Shown piece by piece: positions 40,714 through 47,769 of a stretch of 64,000 nucleotides of DNA (position 1 is its first letter; each line of letters starts with the position of its first letter). The translations under genes were made by a program, and so were the position numbers. Location: positions 372,001-436,000 of the forward strand of contig NZ_JAAOWU010000004.1 of assembly GCF_013778505.1 (NCBI RefSeq), written 5' to 3'. The stretch comes from Pseudomonas sivasensis (lineage in GTDB: Bacteria > Pseudomonadota > Gammaproteobacteria > Pseudomonadales > Pseudomonadaceae). The notes beneath the pieces were generated by a model. That model was not told the origin of the DNA and did not search any database. It worked only from the letters and a program-made list of their open reading frames with translations.

Positions 40714-42138
40714 CTACAGATGGAACCTGCCCCCGCCCTGCCCCAACGCCGTCGCCAACGCATCAAACCCCGCTCGCAACAACTGATCATCTCCCGAGGT
40801 ATTGCAGATACTCGCCCGAATAAACTGCGGGACCGCCGTCTGCCCTACGGCAAATGCTTCGGCGGTGGCGATCAGGTAATTGTTCTGCTTGAGTTCAGCC
40901 TCGATTTCCGACGCACGCCACGGCTCCGGCACTTCAATCCAGAAGTGCGGGCTATTGAGGTGGGTGCGGTATGCCAGGCCTTCCAGCAGGTCACTCACCA
41001 AGGCTTTACGCCGGCTGATCTCGTTGATCTGTTGGCGCAGCAGGTATTCGGCCGTGCCATTTTCGATCCATTGCGTGGCCAGTTCCAAGGTCACCGGCGT
41101 AGCCATCCAGCACGTAGAACGTAAGGCCGCCGAAATACGGCTGACCAACGCCGGCGGCGCATGCACATAGCCCACGCGCAGCCCGGCGGAAACGGCTTTG
41201 CTCAGGCTGCTGATCAAAATCGTGCGCTCGGGGGCGAAATGGCTGAGGGGCGGCGGCCGGTCTTCGACTAATACACCATGAGCTTCGTCTTCAAGGATCA
41301 GCAGATTGTGCTCGCGACACACCTTAACCAGCGCTTCGCGGCGCGCCACCGATAACACGGCGGTGGTGGGGTTCTGGATCGTCGGCGTGCAGTACAGCGC
41401 CGAAATCCGGTGGTTTCGACAGACTTCGTCCAGCGCATTCGGCAACACGCCCTCGTCATCCATCTCCAGGCCGATCAGGCGGATGCCAAGCATGCGCGCC
41501 GCGGTGATCAAGCCTGGATACGTCAGTTGCTCGGTCACCACCGTATCGCCGGCACGCAGCAGCGCCATCATCGCGCAGAGCAGGCCGTGCTGGCCGCCAT
41601 TGACGCAGATGACCTGCTCGGGAATCGGATGAAAATCCCTCTGCACCAGCCATTGCGCACCCGCTTCGCGGTAGCGCGGCAGGCCAGCGTCCGGGGTATA
41701 GGCGCTGATGTCCTGAAGGAACTTGGCGTTGGTCGATAAGGTTTGGAAGCTCTGGGCCAGGAACGCCGTCTCCTGCCCGGGGATATGCATGTTGCGGCTC
41801 ATATCGAAGTACTGGCGCGGCTCCTCGCTGACGTTGCGAAAGCCTTCATCGCGCTGGCGCTCCATCCCACGCTTGCGCACGAATGTTCCGTCACCGACTC
41901 GTGCAACCACCAAGCCAAGGCGCTCCAACTCACCGTAGGCCCGGCTGATGGTGCCGATGGTCACACCCAGATTGTCGGAAAGCACCCGATGGGGCGGCAG
42001 TTTTCGTCCCGGCTCAATCAAGCCTTCGAGGATGCCCCGTTCCATGACATCGGACAGGCGCTTGTACTTCACGCCCTGACCGTTGGACAAGCCCTCACGC
42101 ATAATTGACACCATGTCAATATTTGTTTTGACAGCCAT
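40714..42138 (-). CDS. MocR/PdxR-type GntR regulator with aminotransferase domain
   Basis: A 474-residue regulator with an N-terminal GntR winged helix (KLPPHRVLSDNLGVTIGTISRAYGELERLG) and a C-terminal fold-type I aminotransferase domain. The PLP lysine is in LISSLSKAVSAGLRVGYV. Other landmarks are CVNGGQHGLLCAMMAL and YCTPTIQNPTTAV. MocR proteins sense PLP or its amino-acid adducts and bind direct repeats. This gene is divergent from the transporter and cysteine-type operon across 103 bases containing three GTTCAAT repeats, so it is the likely regulator. An amino acid such as cysteine may be the effector (inference). Confidence 0.9.
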   Translation of the reverse strand: MAVKTNIDMVSIMREGLSNGQGVKYKRLSDVMERGILEGLIEPGRKLPPHRVLSDNLGVTIGTISRAYGELERLGLVVARVGDGTFVRKRGMERQRDEGFRNVSEEPRQYFDMSRNMHIPGQETAFLAQSFQTLSTNAKFLQDISAYTPDAGLPRYREAGAQWLVQRDFHPIPEQVICVNGGQHGLLCAMMALLRAGDTVVTEQLTYPGLITAARMLGIRLIGLEMDDEGVLPNALDEVCRNHRISALYCTPTIQNPTTAVLSVARREALVKVCREHNLLILEDEAHGVLVEDRPPPLSHFAPERTILISSLSKAVSAGLRVGYVHAPPALVSRISAALRSTCWMATPVTLELATQWIENGTAEYLLRQQINEISRRKALVSDLLEGLAYRTHLNSPHFWIEVPEPWRASEIEAELKQNNYLIATAEAFAVGQTAVPQFIRASICNTSGDDQLLRAGFDALATALGQGGGRFHL

Positions 42139-42241: not shown

Positions 42242-43192
42242 ATGCCAATGTCCGCCGTTATAGAAAACACCGCCAAAACCAACACCCAAAAACAGTGGTT
42301 GGCCGGGCTGATCACCAGTGTGATGTTCCTGATCGTGTGCCTGAGTTGGGGCACGACCTGGCTGGGCATCAAAATTGCCGTGGAAAGCGTGCCGCCACTG
42401 ACCTCTGCCGGCCTGCGTTTCCTGATCGCGTTCCCGCTGTTCCTGTGTTTTGCCATGGTGCGGCGCGAGCCGATCCTGTTTCCCCGCGAAAGCCGCTGGT
42501 TCTTCGTGTTCGTGACCCTGTCCTACTTCAGCGTTCCCTACTACTTGCTCAACTATGGCGAGATGCATGTCTCGTCCGGCCTGACCGCCCTGCTCTTCAG
42601 TTGCATGCCGGTATTCATCCTGATTTTCTCCGCGCTATTTCTGCGCGAGCGCATCTACTTTTCCCAAGTGGTCGGCATCGGCATCGGCTTCGGCAGCCTC
42701 TACATGATCATCAGGAGCCAGGGATTGCACCTGGACCACGCTGAGTTCTTCGGCGTACTGGCGATTCTGACCGCCGCGATCATGCATGCCTTGTGCTACG
42801 TGATTACCAAGCAGAAAGGCAGCGCCATCAGCGTGATCACCTACAACACCCTGCCCATCGGCATCGCCGGGCTGATGCTGTTCGTCGCCGGGCTGTGGTT
42901 TGAAACACCCACCTTTGAAGACATCACCCTGCGCTCCTGGAGTGCCCTGTTCTACCTCGGACTGGTGGCGTCGGTGGGCGGGTTCATCGTGTACTTCATG
43001 CTGCTCAAGCGCTTGAGCCCGATCATCCTGTCGTTCGTGTTCATCATCTTCCCGGTGTTCGCGGTGATCATCGGCGCCTGGTACGAAGGCGTGGCGATTT
43101 CACGCGACCTGATGCTGTATTCGGCCATCCTGCTGGCTGGCTTTGCGATCACCAAGTTGCCGATTGAAAAACTCATGGCCAAGAAAAATTGA
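42242..43192 (+). CDS. EamA/DMT-family transporter, putative amino-acid or metabolite exporter
   Basis: A 316-residue inner-membrane protein with ten predicted helices in two EamA halves (VCLSWGTTWLGIKIAVESVP in the first, ILTAAIMHALCYVITKQKG at the start of the second; FIIFPVFAVIIGAWYEGVAI near the end). The DMT family includes the cysteine and O-acetylserine exporter EamA. It is the first gene of the operon with sulfur-transfer and cysteine-synthase-like genes, which suggests export of the product. The next start is 23 bases downstream. Confidence 0.87.
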   Translation: MPMSAVIENTAKTNTQKQWLAGLITSVMFLIVCLSWGTTWLGIKIAVESVPPLTSAGLRFLIAFPLFLCFAMVRREPILFPRESRWFFVFVTLSYFSVPYYLLNYGEMHVSSGLTALLFSCMPVFILIFSALFLRERIYFSQVVGIGIGFGSLYMIIRSQGLHLDHAEFFGVLAILTAAIMHALCYVITKQKGSAISVITYNTLPIGIAGLMLFVAGLWFETPTFEDITLRSWSALFYLGLVASVGGFIVYFMLLKRLSPIILSFVFIIFPVFAVIIGAWYEGVAISRDLMLYSAILLAGFAITKLPIEKLMAKKN

Positions 43193-43215: not shown

Positions 43216-45078
43216 ATGGAAGTCCTCCGCCCCACCGCCCTGGAACAGATCTACGCCCACGCCAGCCGCAGCTATCCCGAGGAATGCTGTGGCTACGTCT
43301 TTGCCGACGGCAGCGTGTACCTGGGCAGCAATATCCAAAATGAATTGCACCACAAGAACCCCGAGATGTACCCGCGCAGCGCGGCCAGCGGCTACACCTT
43401 CTCGGTGGCCGACACCCTGCTGCTGAACAAGGCATTTCGCGGCGACAACCCCGTGGTGGTGATCTACCACTCCCACCCGGACGTCGGCGCGTATTTCAGC
43501 GACGAGGACCAGGACAAGGCGCTGTTCCTGGGCGAGCCGATCTACCCCGTGAGCTATCTGGTGGTGGATGTTCGCCAGGGCCAGGCCCTCGGTTCCAAGC
43601 TATTTGCCTGGGATGGCAAACATTTCGCCCTTCAACCTTTCAACGACCTGCACACGGAGTTGTCCATGAACGCTGTCTCTTTCCCCGATATCCTGGTTCG
43701 CGTGGCCAAGCTGCCGGAATCGACCCTTGAGAGCACCGGATCGACATTGCGCGAAGTCATTGAAAACCTCTGCAGCAGCCACCCGCAGTTGCGTGCGCAC
43801 CTGTTTCACGAGAAGAACAACCAGCTCAAGGAACACTTCCTGTTTACCGCCGAAGAAGAGCTGATCGGTGCCGACGAACCCTTGCCGGAACAAGCCAAAA
43901 TCGAAGTGCTGCTCGCCACGTCCGGCGGCATAGACCTCGACAGTCTGAGCAACGAGGAAGTACAGCGCTACGTGCGCCACATCACCCTGCCGGGCGTCGG
44001 CCGCGAAGGCCAGTTGAACCTGAAAAAAGCCAAGGTCTTGATCATCGGCACCGGTGGCCTGGGCTCCCCCATCAGCCTGTACCTGGCGGCGGCCGGTGTC
44101 GGCACTCTGGGCCTGGTGGATTTCGATGTAGTAGAAAGCAGCAACCTGCAACGCCAAATCGTCCACGGCAACAGCACCCTCGGCATGCCCAAGGTCGAAT
44201 CCGCCAAGCAACGCCTGCAAGACCTCAACAGTCATATCCAGATCAACGCCCACGACACCGCCCTGAATGCCGACAATGCCCTGGAGTTGGTGGGTGCCTA
44301 TGACCTGGTGATCGACGGCACCGACAACTTCGACACCCGCTACCTGGTCAATGACGCCTGCGTACAGCTTGGAAAACCCTTGGTGTATGGCGCCATCTAC
44401 CGTTTCGACGGGCAGATCAGCGTCCTCAACTACAAGGGCGGGCCGTGCTACCGCTGCCTGTTCCCCAGCGCACCGCCCGCAGAGCTGGCACCCAATTGCA
44501 GCGCCGGTGGCGTGATTGGCGTACTGCCCGGAGTGGTTGGGATGATCCAGGCCACCGAGGCCATCAAGCTGTTGATCGGCATTGGCGAACCGCTGTCCGG
44601 GCGCTTGATGCGCTTCGATGCGCTGGCGATGAAATTCAGTGAAATCCGCTTCAAACGCCGCGCTGATTGCCCGTGCTGCTCCGAACTGCGCCACAGTGAA
44701 ACGGTCGCGCCAGCCGTGTGCGCCGACACCATGCCCAGCGCACCGTCACTCGCTGAAGAGCGCTACATCAAGCCGCGCGTTCTCAAGCAATTGCTCGAAC
44801 ACCCGCACAGCGCCGACGTGCTGCTGGACGTGCGCGACGCCAGCGAACTGGAGGTGTGCAAGTTACCGGGGGTGGTGCACATCCCCCTCGCTGAGCTGGA
44901 CGGTCAACTCGACCGCCTCAGCCGCGACAACACTCATTACCTGATCTGCTACGCCGGCACCCGCGCCGAGCAAGCGGCCAGTACGCTGCTCGCGGCAGGT
45001 TTTGCCAACACCAAAGTCCTGCAAGGCGGCATGAAGCACTGGGTTCGCGACGTCGAACCCGACATGCCCTTGTACTGA
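43216..45078 (+). CDS. Fusion protein: JAMM protease - ThiS/MoaD-like carrier - E1 (ThiF/MoeB) - rhodanese
   Basis: A 620-residue protein from ATG 43216 (MEVLRPTALEQIYAHASRSY). Residues 1-140 form a JAMM/MPN+ metalloprotease: Glu in PEECCGYVF, then H85-S-H87-P and the Ser and Asp of FSDED. Residues about 151-238 look like a beta-grasp carrier (ILVRVAKLPE, GSTLREVIENL) ending ATSGG at Gly237-Gly238, not at the protein end. Residues about 250-500 form a MoeB/ThiF E1 adenylyltransferase: GTGGLGSPISLYLAAAGVG, DGTDNFDTRYLVNDAC, zinc cysteines CYRC and CPCC. Residues about 525-620 form a rhodanese with Cys578 in ICYAGTR. Together these could load sulfur on the carrier Gly and release it. Confidence 0.88.
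   Translation: MEVLRPTALEQIYAHASRSYPEECCGYVFADGSVYLGSNIQNELHHKNPEMYPRSAASGYTFSVADTLLLNKAFRGDNPVVVIYHSHPDVGAYFSDEDQDKALFLGEPIYPVSYLVVDVRQGQALGSKLFAWDGKHFALQPFNDLHTELSMNAVSFPDILVRVAKLPESTLESTGSTLREVIENLCSSHPQLRAHLFHEKNNQLKEHFLFTAEEELIGADEPLPEQAKIEVLLATSGGIDLDSLSNEEVQRYVRHITLPGVGREGQLNLKKAKVLIIGTGGLGSPISLYLAAAGVGTLGLVDFDVVESSNLQRQIVHGNSTLGMPKVESAKQRLQDLNSHIQINAHDTALNADNALELVGAYDLVIDGTDNFDTRYLVNDACVQLGKPLVYGAIYRFDGQISVLNYKGGPCYRCLFPSAPPAELAPNCSAGGVIGVLPGVVGMIQATEAIKLLIGIGEPLSGRLMRFDALAMKFSEIRFKRRADCPCCSELRHSETVAPAVCADTMPSAPSLAEERYIKPRVLKQLLEHPHSADVLLDVRDASELEVCKLPGVVHIPLAELDGQLDRLSRDNTHYLICYAGTRAEQAASTLLAAGFANTKVLQGGMKHWVRDVEPDMPLY
43656..43668 (+). promoter_or_regulatory. Possible internal ribosome-binding site and start in the JAMM-E1 fusion gene
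   Basis: GGAG at 43656-43659 stands six bases before an in-frame ATG (43666, Met151) exactly at the start of the carrier-like domain. Use of this start would give a carrier-E1-rhodanese protein without the protease. It could equally be a relic of a former gene boundary. Confidence 0.4.
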
Positions 45079-45093
45079 GTTGAGGACTGACTG

Positions 45094-46008
45094 ATGTTGC
45101 ATAACTCGATCCTCGATGCCATCGGCCACACGCCCATCGTGCGTCTGGCGCAGTTTTCCGAAGACCTCGGCATCGAGGTCTACGCCAAGCTCGAATCCCT
45201 CAACCCCGGCGGCAGCCACAAGGCGCGCATCGCCCTTGGCATGATCCTCGACGCCGAGCGCCGGGGCGTGCTGATGCGCGATTCCGGGCAAACCATCATC
45301 GAGCCCAGTGGCGGCAACACCGGCATCGGCCTGGTGATGGCCGGTAACGTGCTGGGCTACAAGGTGGTGCTGGTGATTCCCGACAACTACAGCCCTGAAA
45401 AACAGAAGCTGCTGCGCCTGTACGGCGCAAAGGTGGTGCTGTCGGACAGCCGCCTGGGCAACAATTCCCACGGTGAAAAATGCATGGAGTTGCAGCTGGA
45501 AAACCCCAACTACGTGATGCTCAACCAGCAACGTAACGGCGCCAACCCGCAGACTCACCGCGACACCACCGCGCCGGAAATCCTCCGCGCCTTTGGTGAT
45601 CGCCGCGTGGACTACTTCGTCAGCGGCATCGGCACCGGTGGCCATATCACCGGTATCGGCGAAACCCTCAAAGCCGCCTGGCCGGCACTACGCGTAATGG
45701 GCGTGGAACCGGAAGAATGTGACCTGCTGAAAAACCAACACGCGCCGCACCATATCCAGGGCCTGTCGATTGGGCTGATCCCGAGCATCCTCAACCTCGA
45801 TGTGATTGACGGCATGCTCAAGGTTTCGCGCCAAGACTGCATCGACATGATGAAACGCATCATGCGCACCGACGCCATCAGCCTGGGCCTCTCCTCCGCC
45901 GCCAACATGGTGGCCGTCGCCAGGCTTGCCCCCGAACTGCCGCCCGAAACGGTGGTGTTGACCATGGTCTACGACAATGCCGACAGCTACCTGCCCAGTT
46001 TCGAATAA
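45094..46008 (+). CDS. Cysteine synthase-like PLP enzyme (CysK/CysM family)
   Basis: A 304-residue fold-type II PLP enzyme. The PLP lysine is Lys43 in NPGGSHKARIAL, where most family members have S-(V/I)-KDR. The substrate loop is EPSGGNTGIGL (usual form TSGNTG), and the phosphate loop is GIGTGGHITG. It should carry out beta-replacement on O-acetylserine or a relative. The sulfur donor could be sulfide or a carrier-protein thiocarboxylate, as with mycobacterial CysM/CysO. It lies 15 bases after the JAMM-E1 fusion gene and 37 before a serine acetyltransferase gene, so substrate supply is encoded next door. Confidence 0.87.
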   Translation: MLHNSILDAIGHTPIVRLAQFSEDLGIEVYAKLESLNPGGSHKARIALGMILDAERRGVLMRDSGQTIIEPSGGNTGIGLVMAGNVLGYKVVLVIPDNYSPEKQKLLRLYGAKVVLSDSRLGNNSHGEKCMELQLENPNYVMLNQQRNGANPQTHRDTTAPEILRAFGDRRVDYFVSGIGTGGHITGIGETLKAAWPALRVMGVEPEECDLLKNQHAPHHIQGLSIGLIPSILNLDVIDGMLKVSRQDCIDMMKRIMRTDAISLGLSSAANMVAVARLAPELPPETVVLTMVYDNADSYLPSFE

Positions 46009-46045: not shown

Positions 46046-47038
46046 ATGGGCGGCTTTATCGACATGCAACACCTGCATGATGAGTTGCTCACCCAACTCA
46101 TCAAGACCCTGACGCCTGCGCAAATGAAACAGCTGGAACCGCACCTGGCGCCGCTGATCCAGAGCGCCGCCCAATCGGTGGCCGAAGACCTGATCGCCTA
46201 TGCCTACCGCGACCCGGCTTCACGCGGTCGCGGCGAGCTGATTCTGGAATCCTATGCCTCGTTCAAGGCGGTGCTGTATTACCGGCTTGCGCATTTGGTG
46301 TGGAATTTCCCCGACCAGACCAACGGCGTGTTCTCGCGCATCGCCCTCAAGCTCAGCAACCAGGGCAAAGTGCTGTCCGGCGCCGAGATACACCCGGCGG
46401 CGCGCATCGGCCGGCGCTTTGTACTGGACCACGGCTACGGCACGGTCATCGGTGAAACCTGCGAGATCGGCAACGACTGCTACATCCTCTGCGGCGTGAC
46501 CCTCGGCGCTCGAGGCATTGCCAACAACCCTGACGGCAAGCGCCATCCACGCCTGGGCAACAACGTCGAAGTCGGCTCCGGTGCCCGGGTGCTGGGGTAT
46601 GTGTTAATTGGCGATAACGTGTTTATCAGCCCGTCCTGCGTGATCACCCAGGACGTGCCCGCCGGGACCAAGGTCAAGGTGGTCAACCAGATCCAACTGC
46701 AGAAAAACGATGAATCGGACCACAGCAGCTACCTTGGCGCCTTCGCCCTGGAGGAGCGCTTGCACGTGGTCGGCGAGGTCAACGCCAGCCACAAGGTGAC
46801 GGTGCTGGACGCCGACTTCCACCCTTTGCCTGGGCTGATGCTGGAGCCGACAGTGAAGGAGCGTCATCACCTCCAATTTCGTCTGCACCGGGTCGAAGCC
46901 GGCAATCAACTGCCGCGCCTGCCGCTGAACCTGAAAATCTGCGGCCCGGAATTTGAAATAACCCTGCTTTCCCCCCCTGGCTTGAGTGCAATGGTGCGCC
47001 ACCTGTTGCAAGCCAGCCCACTGATCGTCGGAGGTTGA
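46046..47038 (+). CDS. Serine O-acetyltransferase with C-terminal extension
   Basis: A 330-residue enzyme (start ATG 46046, MGGFIDMQHLHDELLTQLIK; ATG 46064 is an alternative) that should make O-acetylserine from serine and acetyl-CoA. An N-terminal helical part is followed by left-handed hexapeptide repeats (LSGAEIHPAARIGRRFVLDH, Asp128-His129 catalytic pair; GVTLGARGIANNPDGKRHP; VLIGDNVFISPSCVITQDVP). About 110 residues follow the helix, well beyond a normal CysE tail, and do not match a domain I know. There is no terminal Ile for CysK docking. The protein ends SPLIVGG, but those Gly codons are also the ribosome-binding site of the next gene. Confidence 0.87.
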   Translation: MGGFIDMQHLHDELLTQLIKTLTPAQMKQLEPHLAPLIQSAAQSVAEDLIAYAYRDPASRGRGELILESYASFKAVLYYRLAHLVWNFPDQTNGVFSRIALKLSNQGKVLSGAEIHPAARIGRRFVLDHGYGTVIGETCEIGNDCYILCGVTLGARGIANNPDGKRHPRLGNNVEVGSGARVLGYVLIGDNVFISPSCVITQDVPAGTKVKVVNQIQLQKNDESDHSSYLGAFALEERLHVVGEVNASHKVTVLDADFHPLPGLMLEPTVKERHHLQFRLHRVEAGNQLPRLPLNLKICGPEFEITLLSPPGLSAMVRHLLQASPLIVGG

Positions 47039-47040
47039 AC

Positions 47041-47769
47041 ATGTCCGTGCACTCCATGGAAACCCTGGCGCTGTATGACAGCGCGCCCTACCAGAACGCA
47101 TTCAGCGCCCGGGTGATTGCCGTTAGCGAGCACGGCATTGCCCTGGAGCACACACTGTTCTACCCCACCGGCGGCGGACAGCCGGGCGATACCGGCCACT
47201 TGACCTTACCCGATGGTACGCGGGTCGAAGTGATCGGCACCGTACGCGACCAAGTACTGCGCTCGATCATCTGGCACCAGGTTGAACACTGCCCCGAGCA
47301 ACTGGTTGCCGGAGTACAGGTGGATGCCGGGCTGGATTGGGCACGGCGCTACCAGCACATGAAAATGCACACCTGCCTGCATTTGTTGTGCTCGCTCATC
47401 GATGCACCGGTAACGGGCTGCAGCATCAGTGCCGACAAAGGTCGCCTGGATTTCGACCTGCCGGAAATGACCCTCGACAAAGACAGCATCACCCGCGACC
47501 TCAACGCGCTGATCGAACAGGCTCACCCGGTGAAAACCCTGTCGATGGCTGCCACGGAATACTCCACCCTGTTGCAGATCACCCGCACCCAGGCGGTCGC
47601 CCCCCCGGTGATCCAAGGTTCGGTACGGGTGATTGAAATTGCCGGGATCGACATCCAGCCGTGCGGCGGCACCCACGTGATCAACACTGAGGAAATCGGC
47701 CGGGTGTTCTGCGAAAAGATCGAGAAGAAGAGTAAGCACAATCGCCGGGTGATCCTGCGGTTCGAATGA
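47041..47769 (+). CDS. AlaX-type alanyl-tRNA editing protein
   Basis: A 242-residue stand-alone editing protein related to the editing domain of alanyl-tRNA synthetase, which removes serine or glycine wrongly attached to tRNA-Ala. Zinc ligands are seen in HMKMHTCLHLL (HxxxH) and IQPCGGTHV (CxxxH). The N-terminal part has LFYPTGGGQPGDTGHL. The ATG at 47041 is preceded by GGAGG inside the end of the acetyltransferase gene, so translation is coupled. Its presence in an operon that turns over serine, O-acetylserine and cysteine suggests protection against mischarging with the pathway amino acids (inference). Confidence 0.9.
   Translation: MSVHSMETLALYDSAPYQNAFSARVIAVSEHGIALEHTLFYPTGGGQPGDTGHLTLPDGTRVEVIGTVRDQVLRSIIWHQVEHCPEQLVAGVQVDAGLDWARRYQHMKMHTCLHLLCSLIDAPVTGCSISADKGRLDFDLPEMTLDKDSITRDLNALIEQAHPVKTLSMAATEYSTLLQITRTQAVAPPVIQGSVRVIEIAGIDIQPCGGTHVINTEEIGRVFCEKIEKKSKHNRRVILRFE

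What the first reader, a model, noticed from the sequence alone, without database searches (positions are those of the whole stretch)
43216..45078. Four-domain JAMM - ubiquitin-like carrier - E1 - rhodanese fusion with an internal Gly-Gly
Seen: a complete JAMM motif (Glu22/23, H85-S-H87, Ser, Asp), a carrier-like segment ending ATSGG at residues 237-238, a full ThiF/MoeB E1 with two CxxC zinc pairs, and a rhodanese with Cys578, all in one chain. Known: these parts normally act as separate proteins (CysO, Mec+, MoeZ; QbsC, D and E). Related domain fusions have been noted in surveys of prokaryotic ubiquitin-like systems. Inference: because the Gly-Gly is inside the chain, the JAMM domain may cut its own polypeptide to expose a carrier C-terminus for adenylation and thiolation, an auto-processing sulfur-carrier factory.
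Basis: partly seen in the sequence, partly recalled or inferred. Interest (0 to 1): 0.72.

Follow-up and report, generated by a model that had tools for sequence, protein, structure and literature searches.

The report
Sulfur carrier capped by its activator
A Pseudomonas-type bacterium strings a protease, a ubiquitin-like sulfur carrier, the enzyme that charges the carrier and a sulfur-supplying domain into one protein, and comparison with relatives suggests that a protease cuts the carrier free and that a second, internal start makes a shorter form of the protein.

Summary
The four-domain chain is real (43216-45078, 620 aa): JAMM, CysO/MoaD-like carrier (151-238), MoeB-type E1, rhodanese. The carrier assignment passed its tests: the ThiS model ends at Gly238 and the predicted fold matches CysO and SAMP1. 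Gly237-Gly238 is kept in 73 of 73 unbroken homologs and in 20 of 20 carrier fusions from Acidobacteriota and a planctomycete (two counted in both), although what follows varies freely (0-31 aa). Free carriers of these relatives mostly end in GG plus a short unconserved cap (13 of 17). So the E1 looks like one more cap, and a JAMM lies in the locus of 30 of these 33. Cleavage after Gly238 is supported by comparison and published precedents, but not shown; that the chain cuts itself is not shown. New: the carrier's own ATG (M151) and Shine-Dalgarno persist in 64 of 64 fused genes, under the strongest synonymous constraint of the gene (0 of 2000 permutations), so a second product, carrier-E1-rhodanese, is likely. 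Carrier-MoeBR fusions are in print; I found no report of the four-domain chain or its internal start. Verdict: new variant of a known kind.

The parts
43216..45078 (+). CDS, JAMM - carrier - E1 - rhodanese fusion, 620 aa, 67.8 kDa
43216..43626 (+). JAMM/Prok-JAB domain, residues 1-137
   Evidence: Pfam PF14464 8-118; relative of solved JAMM structures
43282..43284 (+). JAMM Glu23
   Evidence: invariant 73 of 73, 24 of 24
43468..43476 (+). JAMM His85-Ser86-His87
   Evidence: invariant 73 of 73
43498..43509 (+). JAMM Ser95 to Asp98
   Evidence: S95 73 of 73, D98 72 of 73, one row probably misaligned; both 24 of 24
43627..43665 (+). linker 138-150, low confidence in the model
   Evidence: pLDDT under 50 at 139-149, in a model that is poor over much of the JAMM part too
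43655..43659 (+). internal Shine-Dalgarno CGGAG, 6 bases before the ATG
   Evidence: SD-like motif in 64 of 64 fused and 8 of 8 split loci
43666..43668 (+). internal start codon ATG, M151
   Evidence: ATG in 64 of 64 fused and 8 of 8 split loci
43639..43683 (+). block of strongest synonymous-site constraint, codons 142-156
   Evidence: observed/expected entropy 0.12, 0 of 2000 permutations
43735..43779 (+). second constraint block, codons 174-188, cause unknown
   Evidence: observed/expected 0.25
43666..43929 (+). beta-grasp sulfur carrier (Ubl), residues 151-238
43924..43929 (+). Gly237-Gly238, predicted cleavage site after it
   Evidence: GG 73 of 73, 20 of 20 fusions (two loci in both sets)
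43969..44676 (+). ThiF/MoeB-type E1 adenylation domain, residues 252-487
   Evidence: PF00899; MoeB and Uba4 structures
44446..44457 (+). zinc pair Cys411, Cys414
   Evidence: 73 of 73
44497..44499 (+). conserved E1 Cys428
   Evidence: 73 of 73
44668..44679 (+). zinc pair Cys485, Cys488
   Evidence: 73 of 73
44782..45048 (+). rhodanese domain, residues 523-611
   Evidence: PF00581
44947..44949 (+). rhodanese Cys578
   Evidence: 73 of 73
42242..43192 (+). EamA-family exporter gene
   Evidence: PF00892; in 74 of 74 Pseudomonas/Vreelandella loci
45094..46008 (+). CysK/CysM-like PLP cysteine synthase gene
   Evidence: 74 of 74
46046..47038 (+). serine acetyltransferase-like gene (start uncertain)
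   Evidence: TIGR01172 148.8 bits, below its cut-off 210.65; 74 of 74
47041..47769 (+). AlaXM-like alanyl-tRNA editing protein gene (start uncertain)
   Evidence: NF040865 201 bits, below its cut-off 300; 74 of 74
40714..42138 (-). MocR-family regulator gene upstream, opposite strand
   Evidence: 74 of 74

Best explanation
The gene encodes a sulfur carrier of the CysO kind made as a precursor whose C-terminal cap is its own activating enzyme. The JAMM domain, in cis or in trans, hydrolyses the peptide bond after Gly238, giving a carrier with a free Gly-Gly and a separate E1-rhodanese. The E1 then adenylates the carrier, the rhodanese Cys578 supplies persulfide sulfur, and a carrier thiocarboxylate forms. 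The neighbouring cysteine-synthase-like enzyme uses it with an activated serine (from the acetyltransferase-like gene) to give carrier-Gly-Gly-Cys, from which the same JAMM specificity (cut after Gly-Gly) releases cysteine or a cysteine-like amino acid. A second start at M151 yields carrier-E1-rhodanese without JAMM, so that cleavage gives both JAMM-carrier (1-238, 26.5 kDa) and free carrier (151-238, 9.7 kDa). Shown here by computation: domains, motif conservation, the position of GG, linker variability, synonymous constraint at M151, operon. Inferred: cleavage, thiocarboxylate, product, and the second start's use.
For: Carrier identity: ThiS model ends at Gly238; the Ubl profile matches 4n6e_B (ThiS/MoaD protein of the BexX/CysO complex, 1.2e-14) and 3dwg_C (3.6e-11), ending at the last residue of each chain; the AF2 model of 151-245 has pLDDT 86.7 and its best PDB folds are SAMP1 and CysO. 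GG is kept in 73 of 73 and in 20 of 20 fusions (L174 and L192 there are L080 and L081 again), with 0-31 residues of no common sequence before the next domain; in two of the 20 the rhodanese, not the E1, follows the carrier. 13 of 17 free carriers carry 2-26 residues after GG. A JAMM lies in the locus for 30 of these 33 capped or fused carriers, and the genomes of the other 3 have strong Prok-JAB matches, one about 6 kb from its carrier. No synonymous constraint at the GG codons, so no sign of translational separation there. On the E1 tree well-supported branches force at least 5 changes between fused and unfused. Precedents: HvJAMM1 cuts SAMP1-MoaE after the last Gly (PMC4443979), DRJAMM cuts MoaD-MoaE (PMC8832034), MoaX is cut between Gly82 and Ser83 (PMC4326299), capped carriers typically need a protease such as QbsD (PMC6006322). 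Internal start.
Against: No cleavage, thiocarboxylate or cysteine was observed; nothing here is biochemical. A JAMM somewhere in a genome is weak evidence: Prok-JAB also rings in 8 of 14 control genomes (7 over the cut-off), and the window's genome has a second Prok-JAB protein that scores higher than the fusion (72 against 62.9 bits) and could act instead. Of the four carriers ending at GG, two (L171, L192) also lie near a JAMM; the other two (L188, L190) have none in the locus but their genomes have matches of 32.5 and 29.3 bits, still over the cut-off, so the link between cap and JAMM rests on few uncapped cases. In short planctomycete loci (about 1.5 kb flanks) a JAMM was found for only 2 of 6 capped carriers. 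The published cases differ on GG: a paper's introduction says the diglycine was not needed for HvJAMM1 to cut linear fusions in vitro (PMC8832034), in vivo it was (PMC4443979), and MoaX is still cut with Gly82 replaced but not with Gly81 replaced; so GG may be kept for thiocarboxylation as much as for cutting. The synthase is nearer CysK than CysM (295 against 224 bits; no 3dwg chain among the 60 hits shown of 81), and the genome has three other CysK-like genes at 35-41% identity, so cysteine as such may not be the product. The full-length AF2 model is poor in JAMM because its alignment was faulty there, so cis geometry could not be judged.
Confidence: 0.6

Rival explanations
1. Processing in trans only: the fusion merely co-translates the parts, and JAMM domains (or the genome's second JAMM) cut other molecules, including the M151 product; there is no self-cleavage.
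For: JAMM is a separate gene in 10 of 76 loci and in the Acidobacteriota loci where one was found; the internal start would make JAMM-free substrate; a second Prok-JAB protein is encoded elsewhere.
Against: The JAMM fusion is kept as one open frame in 65 of 76 loci. The tail from Gly237 on is low-confidence in the carrier model, which would allow cis cleavage but does not show it.
Confidence: 0.35
2. No cleavage: the fused carrier is a docking or regulatory domain and the E1 charges a separate carrier.
For: Iyer et al. 2006 suggest a different role for Ub-like domains fused to some ThiF proteins that co-occur with free ThiS (PMC1779556, passage); the genome has two other ThiS-family proteins.
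Against: GG is kept in 73 of 73 and 20 of 20 although the linker varies; no second carrier was found in the 74 Pseudomonas/Vreelandella loci at E 1e-10; free carriers of relatives are capped in the same place.
Confidence: 0.13
3. The JAMM only releases cysteine from the carrier adduct (as Mec+, recalled) and another protease exposes Gly238.
For: MoaX is cut after its Gly-Gly by an as yet unidentified protease (PMC4326299, abstract).
Against: 30 of 33 capped or fused carriers have a JAMM in the locus; HvJAMM1 and DRJAMM do cut linear fusions.
Confidence: 0.16
4. Protein modifier rather than sulfur supply: the carrier is conjugated to proteins and removed by JAMM, as SAMP or Urm1.
For: SAMP1 is the top fold match; E1-rhodanese is related to Uba4.
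Against: Cysteine-synthase-like and acetyltransferase-like genes adjoin it in 74 of 74 loci, and a synthase match lies in 18 of the 20 fused loci (partial and weak in L159); PADLOC E1-E2 models match best over the E1 core, at about 75 bits or less.
Confidence: 0.1

Closest known systems
CysO - CysM - Mec+ - MoeZ cysteine pathway of mycobacteria (pathway recalled; operon with ClpS in Iyer 2006 Table 1 row 4d, passages; structure 3dwg)
   Same: CysO-like carrier fold, MoeZ-type E1-rhodanese, JAMM, PLP cysteine synthase next door
   Different: separate genes and free C-terminal GG there (recalled); here one chain with internal GG, an acetyltransferase-like gene, a CysK-like rather than CysM-like enzyme
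Operon class 4c of Iyer et al. 2006 (ThiS/MoaD, E1-rhodanese, JAB, cysteine synthase; PMC1779556, sections 12 and 16 read, other passages and Table 1 rows seen)
   Same: same four activities; they list Pseudomonas aeruginosa among others and propose that JAB may free fused ThiS/MoaD
   Different: the text seen does not describe a single chain holding all four domains, nor an internal start; figures are not held
MoaD-MoeB and MoaD-MoeBR fusions (PMC11237513, section 12 read, passages seen)
   Same: carrier fused to E1, with or without rhodanese; gene transfer from Acidobacteria suggested
   Different: no JAMM in the chain; no test of GG, caps or processing of these fusions in the section read
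JAMM-processed linear fusions: SAMP1-MoaE/HvJAMM1 (PMC4443979, passages), DR MoaD-MoaE/DRJAMM (PMC8832034, abstract and passages), MoaX (PMC4326299, abstract and passages)
   Same: carrier with internal GG that must be cut to work
   Different: partner is MoaE, protease is a separate protein (unidentified for MoaX)
QbsCDE / PdtFGH thiocarboxylate siderophore systems (PMC1779556; PMC6006322, passages)
   Same: JAMM, capped carrier, E1-rhodanese
   Different: separate proteins, AMP-ligase and CoA-transferase neighbours that are not among the six genes typed here; E1 lies in another part of the tree if, as I assume, the seven separate Pseudomonas E1 rows are of this type

Membership tests
CysO-type sulfur carrier | beta-grasp fold related to CysO/MoaD/ThiS | tested here: met
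CysO-type sulfur carrier | Gly-Gly at the free C-terminus as encoded | tested here: not met
   GG is internal (237-238 of 620); would be met only after cleavage
CysO-type sulfur carrier | thiocarboxylate on the last Gly | not testable with these tools
   needs mass spectrometry
MPN+/JAMM metalloprotease | E, HxH, S, D motif complete | tested here: met
MoeZ/MoeBR (E1 plus rhodanese) | ThiF domain with zinc pairs followed by rhodanese with active Cys | tested here: met
   NCBIfam MoeZ and most MoeB models hit below their cut-offs, the MoeB subfamily model PRK05690 above it
CysO-CysM-Mec+ pathway | PLP cysteine synthase encoded with carrier and JAMM | tested here: met
   74 of 74 loci, match in 18 of 20 fused loci
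CysO-CysM-Mec+ pathway | synthase of CysM type using the carrier thiocarboxylate | tested here: inconclusive
   nearer CysK than CysM models; best solved relatives are cysteine synthases and O-ureido-L-serine synthase; donor not testable
MoaD-MoeBR fusion family (PMC11237513) | carrier, E1 and rhodanese in one chain | tested here: met
   the JAMM domain is extra
JAMM-processed linear carrier fusion | internal GG plus a JAMM encoded with it | tested here: met
JAMM-processed linear carrier fusion | observed cut after the second Gly | not testable with these tools
   bench experiment
Qbs/Pdt siderophore sulfur system | AMP-ligase and CoA-transferase genes in the cluster | tested here: not met
   the five neighbours typed are MocR, EamA, CysK-like, SAT-like and AlaX-like; genes further off were not typed
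E1/JAMM anti-phage systems | full-length match to a defence model, with E2 | tested here: not met
   best stretches of about 80-180 residues over the E1 core, about 75 bits or less, in the best 25 shown of 32

The most novel reading that the evidence does not exclude
A gene within a gene that sets the ratio of two carrier forms: the full chain self-matures to a carrier tethered to its own release protease (JAMM-carrier), while the internal start at M151 gives a free carrier after cleavage; the E1 is the removable cap of its own substrate. With the exporter and the AlaX-like tRNA editor kept in 74 of 74 loci, the unit may make not housekeeping cysteine but a secreted cysteine- or serine-like amino acid against which translation has to be protected.
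Probability: 0.3. Interest if true: 0.72.

Novelty: new variant of a known kind. Interest (0 to 1): 0.52.

Why it matters
It offers a one-gene model of how ubiquitin-like carriers are matured: substrate, protease and activating enzyme start as one chain, and relatives show fused, capped and free states of the same carrier. If the M151 start is used, it would show how a cell gets a free carrier from a polyprotein while keeping one copy tied to the protease. It also points to a conserved amino-acid operon in Pseudomonas whose product is unknown.

Tried and rejected
Defence system: rejected, PADLOC models match best over the E1 core only. Translational separation at Gly-Gly (recoding or a start right after it): not supported; codons 237 and 238 vary about as much as the gene mean (0.79 and 0.70 bits against 0.66), and codon 239 is ATG in 42 of 57 rows but ATC (14) or ATA (1) in the rest; I saw no Shine-Dalgarno before it in the window's sequence. 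RNA structure as the cause of the constraint at M151: not supported, the stretch folds less well than most shuffles (z 1.38). Planctomycetota as a second home of the fusion: only the seed genome of 99 had a full-span match without a stop. First survey of Pseudomonadota with the window's own segment: full-span matches in 6 of 398 genomes, the window's own included, all in its genus; re-scanning 15 chosen genomes with the profile found no further fusion. The full-length AF2 model was not used for JAMM: alignment A2 misplaced the JAMM fragments (my reading of its consensus). In alignment A3 my coordinates cut row L165 short of its GG; one search shows the GG. A paper on Pseudomonas aeruginosa cysteine synthases (PMC12895370, two passages) held nothing on this system. 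Literature on this exact chain: searches listed no paper that describes it, judged by titles, starts of abstracts and the passages and sections I opened; supplements could not be read. Not done: a control set of carrier-ThiF fusions without JAMM, to see whether GG is lost there; a null expectation for SD-like motifs.
Full report
Observation. The ORF at 43216-45078 (+) encodes 620 residues. Pfam finds Prok-JAB (8-118), ThiF (252-487) and rhodanese (523-611). The carrier segment, the least certain part, holds: the ThiS model PF02597, run over the genome, matches residues 158-238 at 23.2 bits (cut-off 22.5) and its last position falls on Gly238. A profile of ten relatives matches 4n6e_B (1.2e-14) and 3dwg_C (3.6e-11), ending at the last residue of each chain. 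The AF2 model of residues 151-245 from 23 rows has pLDDT 86.7, with the tail from Gly237 on below 50; Foldseek's best solved folds are SAMP1 and CysO (TM-scores about 0.7-0.8).

Conservation. One search gave 76 loci, 73 Pseudomonas, one Vreelandella and two distant ones by title. In 65 the JAMM, carrier and E1 share one frame (two, L063 and L078, are broken further down); L065 is broken within the carrier; in 8 Pseudomonas/Vreelandella loci and in the two distant ones (L080 Acidobacteriota, L081 Phycisphaera) JAMM is a separate gene before a carrier-E1-rhodanese fusion. Leaving out the three broken copies, GG is 73 of 73, and E23, H85, S86, H87, S95, C411, C414, C428, C485, C488, C578 and R583 are 73 of 73; D98 is 72 of 73, probably an alignment fault at an insertion. 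In a sample of 149 genomes of the genus, own genome included, 24 have a full-span match.

Fused, capped and free carriers. In 99 genomes of the phylum of L080 (Acidobacteriota by its record title), 17, the seed included, have the carrier and E1 in one frame. I fetched these, two with the order carrier-rhodanese-E1, the Phycisphaera locus and chosen relatives with separate genes, 35 stretches in all. The order cysteine synthase, JAMM, carrier, E1-rhodanese is found in 24 of the 35 (my count). All 20 fused carriers keep GG (L174 and L192 among them are L080 and L081 again); between GG and the next domain lie 0-31 residues with no common sequence. All 17 free carriers keep GG too, but 13 run on for 2-26 residues, also without common sequence. 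PMC6006322 (passages) calls such carriers capped and says they typically need a protease. A JAMM lies in the locus for 18 of 20 fused and 12 of 13 capped carriers; the genomes of the other three have strong Prok-JAB matches, for one about 6 kb away, for two on other contigs. That last point is weak, since Prok-JAB also rings in 8 of 14 control genomes. Of the four carriers ending at GG, two (L188, L190) have no JAMM in the locus and lower-scoring ones in the genome (32.5 and 29.3 bits, cut-off 25); the other two sit in loci that also hold a fused carrier with its JAMM. In planctomycete loci with short flanks, 7 of 7 free carriers keep GG, 6 are capped, and a JAMM was seen for 2 of these 6. On an E1 tree of 63 rows the unfused state needs 8 changes and well-supported branches force at least 5, with some long branches flagged; the four-domain form fits one origin, weakly supported (72/59). 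So GG has outlived repeated fusion or fission while what follows it varies, as expected of a protease site with the E1 as one more cap.

What cuts. HvJAMM1 cuts a SAMP1-MoaE linear fusion after the last Gly (PMC4443979, passages); DRJAMM cuts MoaD-MoaE and leaves a C-terminal Gly (PMC8832034, abstract and passages); MoaX is cut between Gly82 and Ser83 by an unidentified protease and needs this to work (PMC4326299, abstract and passages). Iyer et al. 2006 proposed that JAB could free a fused ThiS or MoaD (PMC1779556, section 16). Against a simple reading, the diglycine is reported as not needed for cutting by HvJAMM1 in vitro (introduction of PMC8832034), and MoaX with Gly82 replaced is still cut; GG may be kept for thiocarboxylation as much as for cutting. 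Cleavage after Gly238 by a JAMM is therefore likely but not shown. Whether it is in cis is open: the window's genome holds a second Prok-JAB protein, and the model could not judge geometry because my alignment misplaced JAMM fragments.

Internal start. One cut after Gly238 would leave the carrier joined to JAMM. In all 64 fused loci examined (L065 and L078 left out), and in all 8 split ones of that range, the carrier begins with ATG and an SD-like motif lies upstream, in this window CGGAG six bases before the ATG. In 57 aligned genes without indels (window and 56 loci, 84-90% nucleotide identity to the window) the strongest synonymous-site constraint of the whole gene lies at codons 142-156, over this SD and ATG: observed/expected entropy 0.12, not reached by any window in 2000 permutations within amino-acid classes; the gene's real start scores 0.65. 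The stretch is not unusually structured (z 1.38). The permutation test does not model regional differences in mutation or shared descent, and a second block (codons 174-188, 0.25) is unexplained. I read this as a working second start giving carrier-E1-rhodanese (470 aa, 51.0 kDa).

Pathway. MocR regulator, EamA exporter, fusion, CysK-like enzyme, SAT-like enzyme and AlaX-like editor are together in 74 of 74 Pseudomonas/Vreelandella loci. SAT and AlaX score below their curated cut-offs. The genome has three other CysK-like genes at 35-41% identity and two other ThiS-family carriers, so this is an additional route. By analogy with CysO-CysM-Mec+ (recalled) the carrier thiocarboxylate and an activated serine would give carrier-Gly-Gly-Cys, and the JAMM would release cysteine: the same cut after Gly-Gly in maturation and in turnover. 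The synthase is nearer CysK than CysM, so another amino acid is possible.

Novelty. Carrier-MoeB and carrier-MoeBR fusions are in print (PMC11237513, section 12), as are JAMM-processed linear fusions and the operon class. The searches listed nothing that I could recognise as a chain of all four domains or its internal start. I file it as a new variant of a known kind.

Noticed in passing
47041-47769: AlaXM-like alanyl-tRNA editing protein closes the conserved gene set in 74 of 74 Pseudomonas/Vreelandella loci; why it belongs with cysteine-like genes is unexplained.
   Followed up: partly
43735-43779 (codons 174-188): A second block of synonymous-site constraint (observed/expected 0.25) inside the carrier domain, cause unknown.
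   Followed up: no
G000:C53:2292-2594 (own genome, outside the window): A second Prok-JAB protein (72 bits, 297-codon frame), a possible trans-acting alternative.
   Followed up: no
L175, L178, L179, L181, L182, L183: Caps after Gly-Gly contain cysteine in 6 of 13 capped free carriers.
   Followed up: no
L176, L177: Carrier-rhodanese-E1 order, i.e. the rhodanese lies between carrier and E1.
   Followed up: partly
L063, L065, L078: Copies of the fusion broken by frame changes, real or from assembly.
   Followed up: no
L192 and L171: A second, free carrier ending exactly at Gly-Gly lies about 3 kb from the fused one.
   Followed up: no
43600-44694 (-): A 364-codon open frame on the opposite strand overlaps carrier and E1; probably a by-product of GC-rich coding sequence.
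   Followed up: no
L155 1038-9151: Aliarcobacter plasmid with cysteine synthase, M67 metallopeptidase, MoaD/ThiS gene, rhodanese and an encapsulin with cysteine desulfurase cargo, with two transposase genes in between.
   Followed up: no
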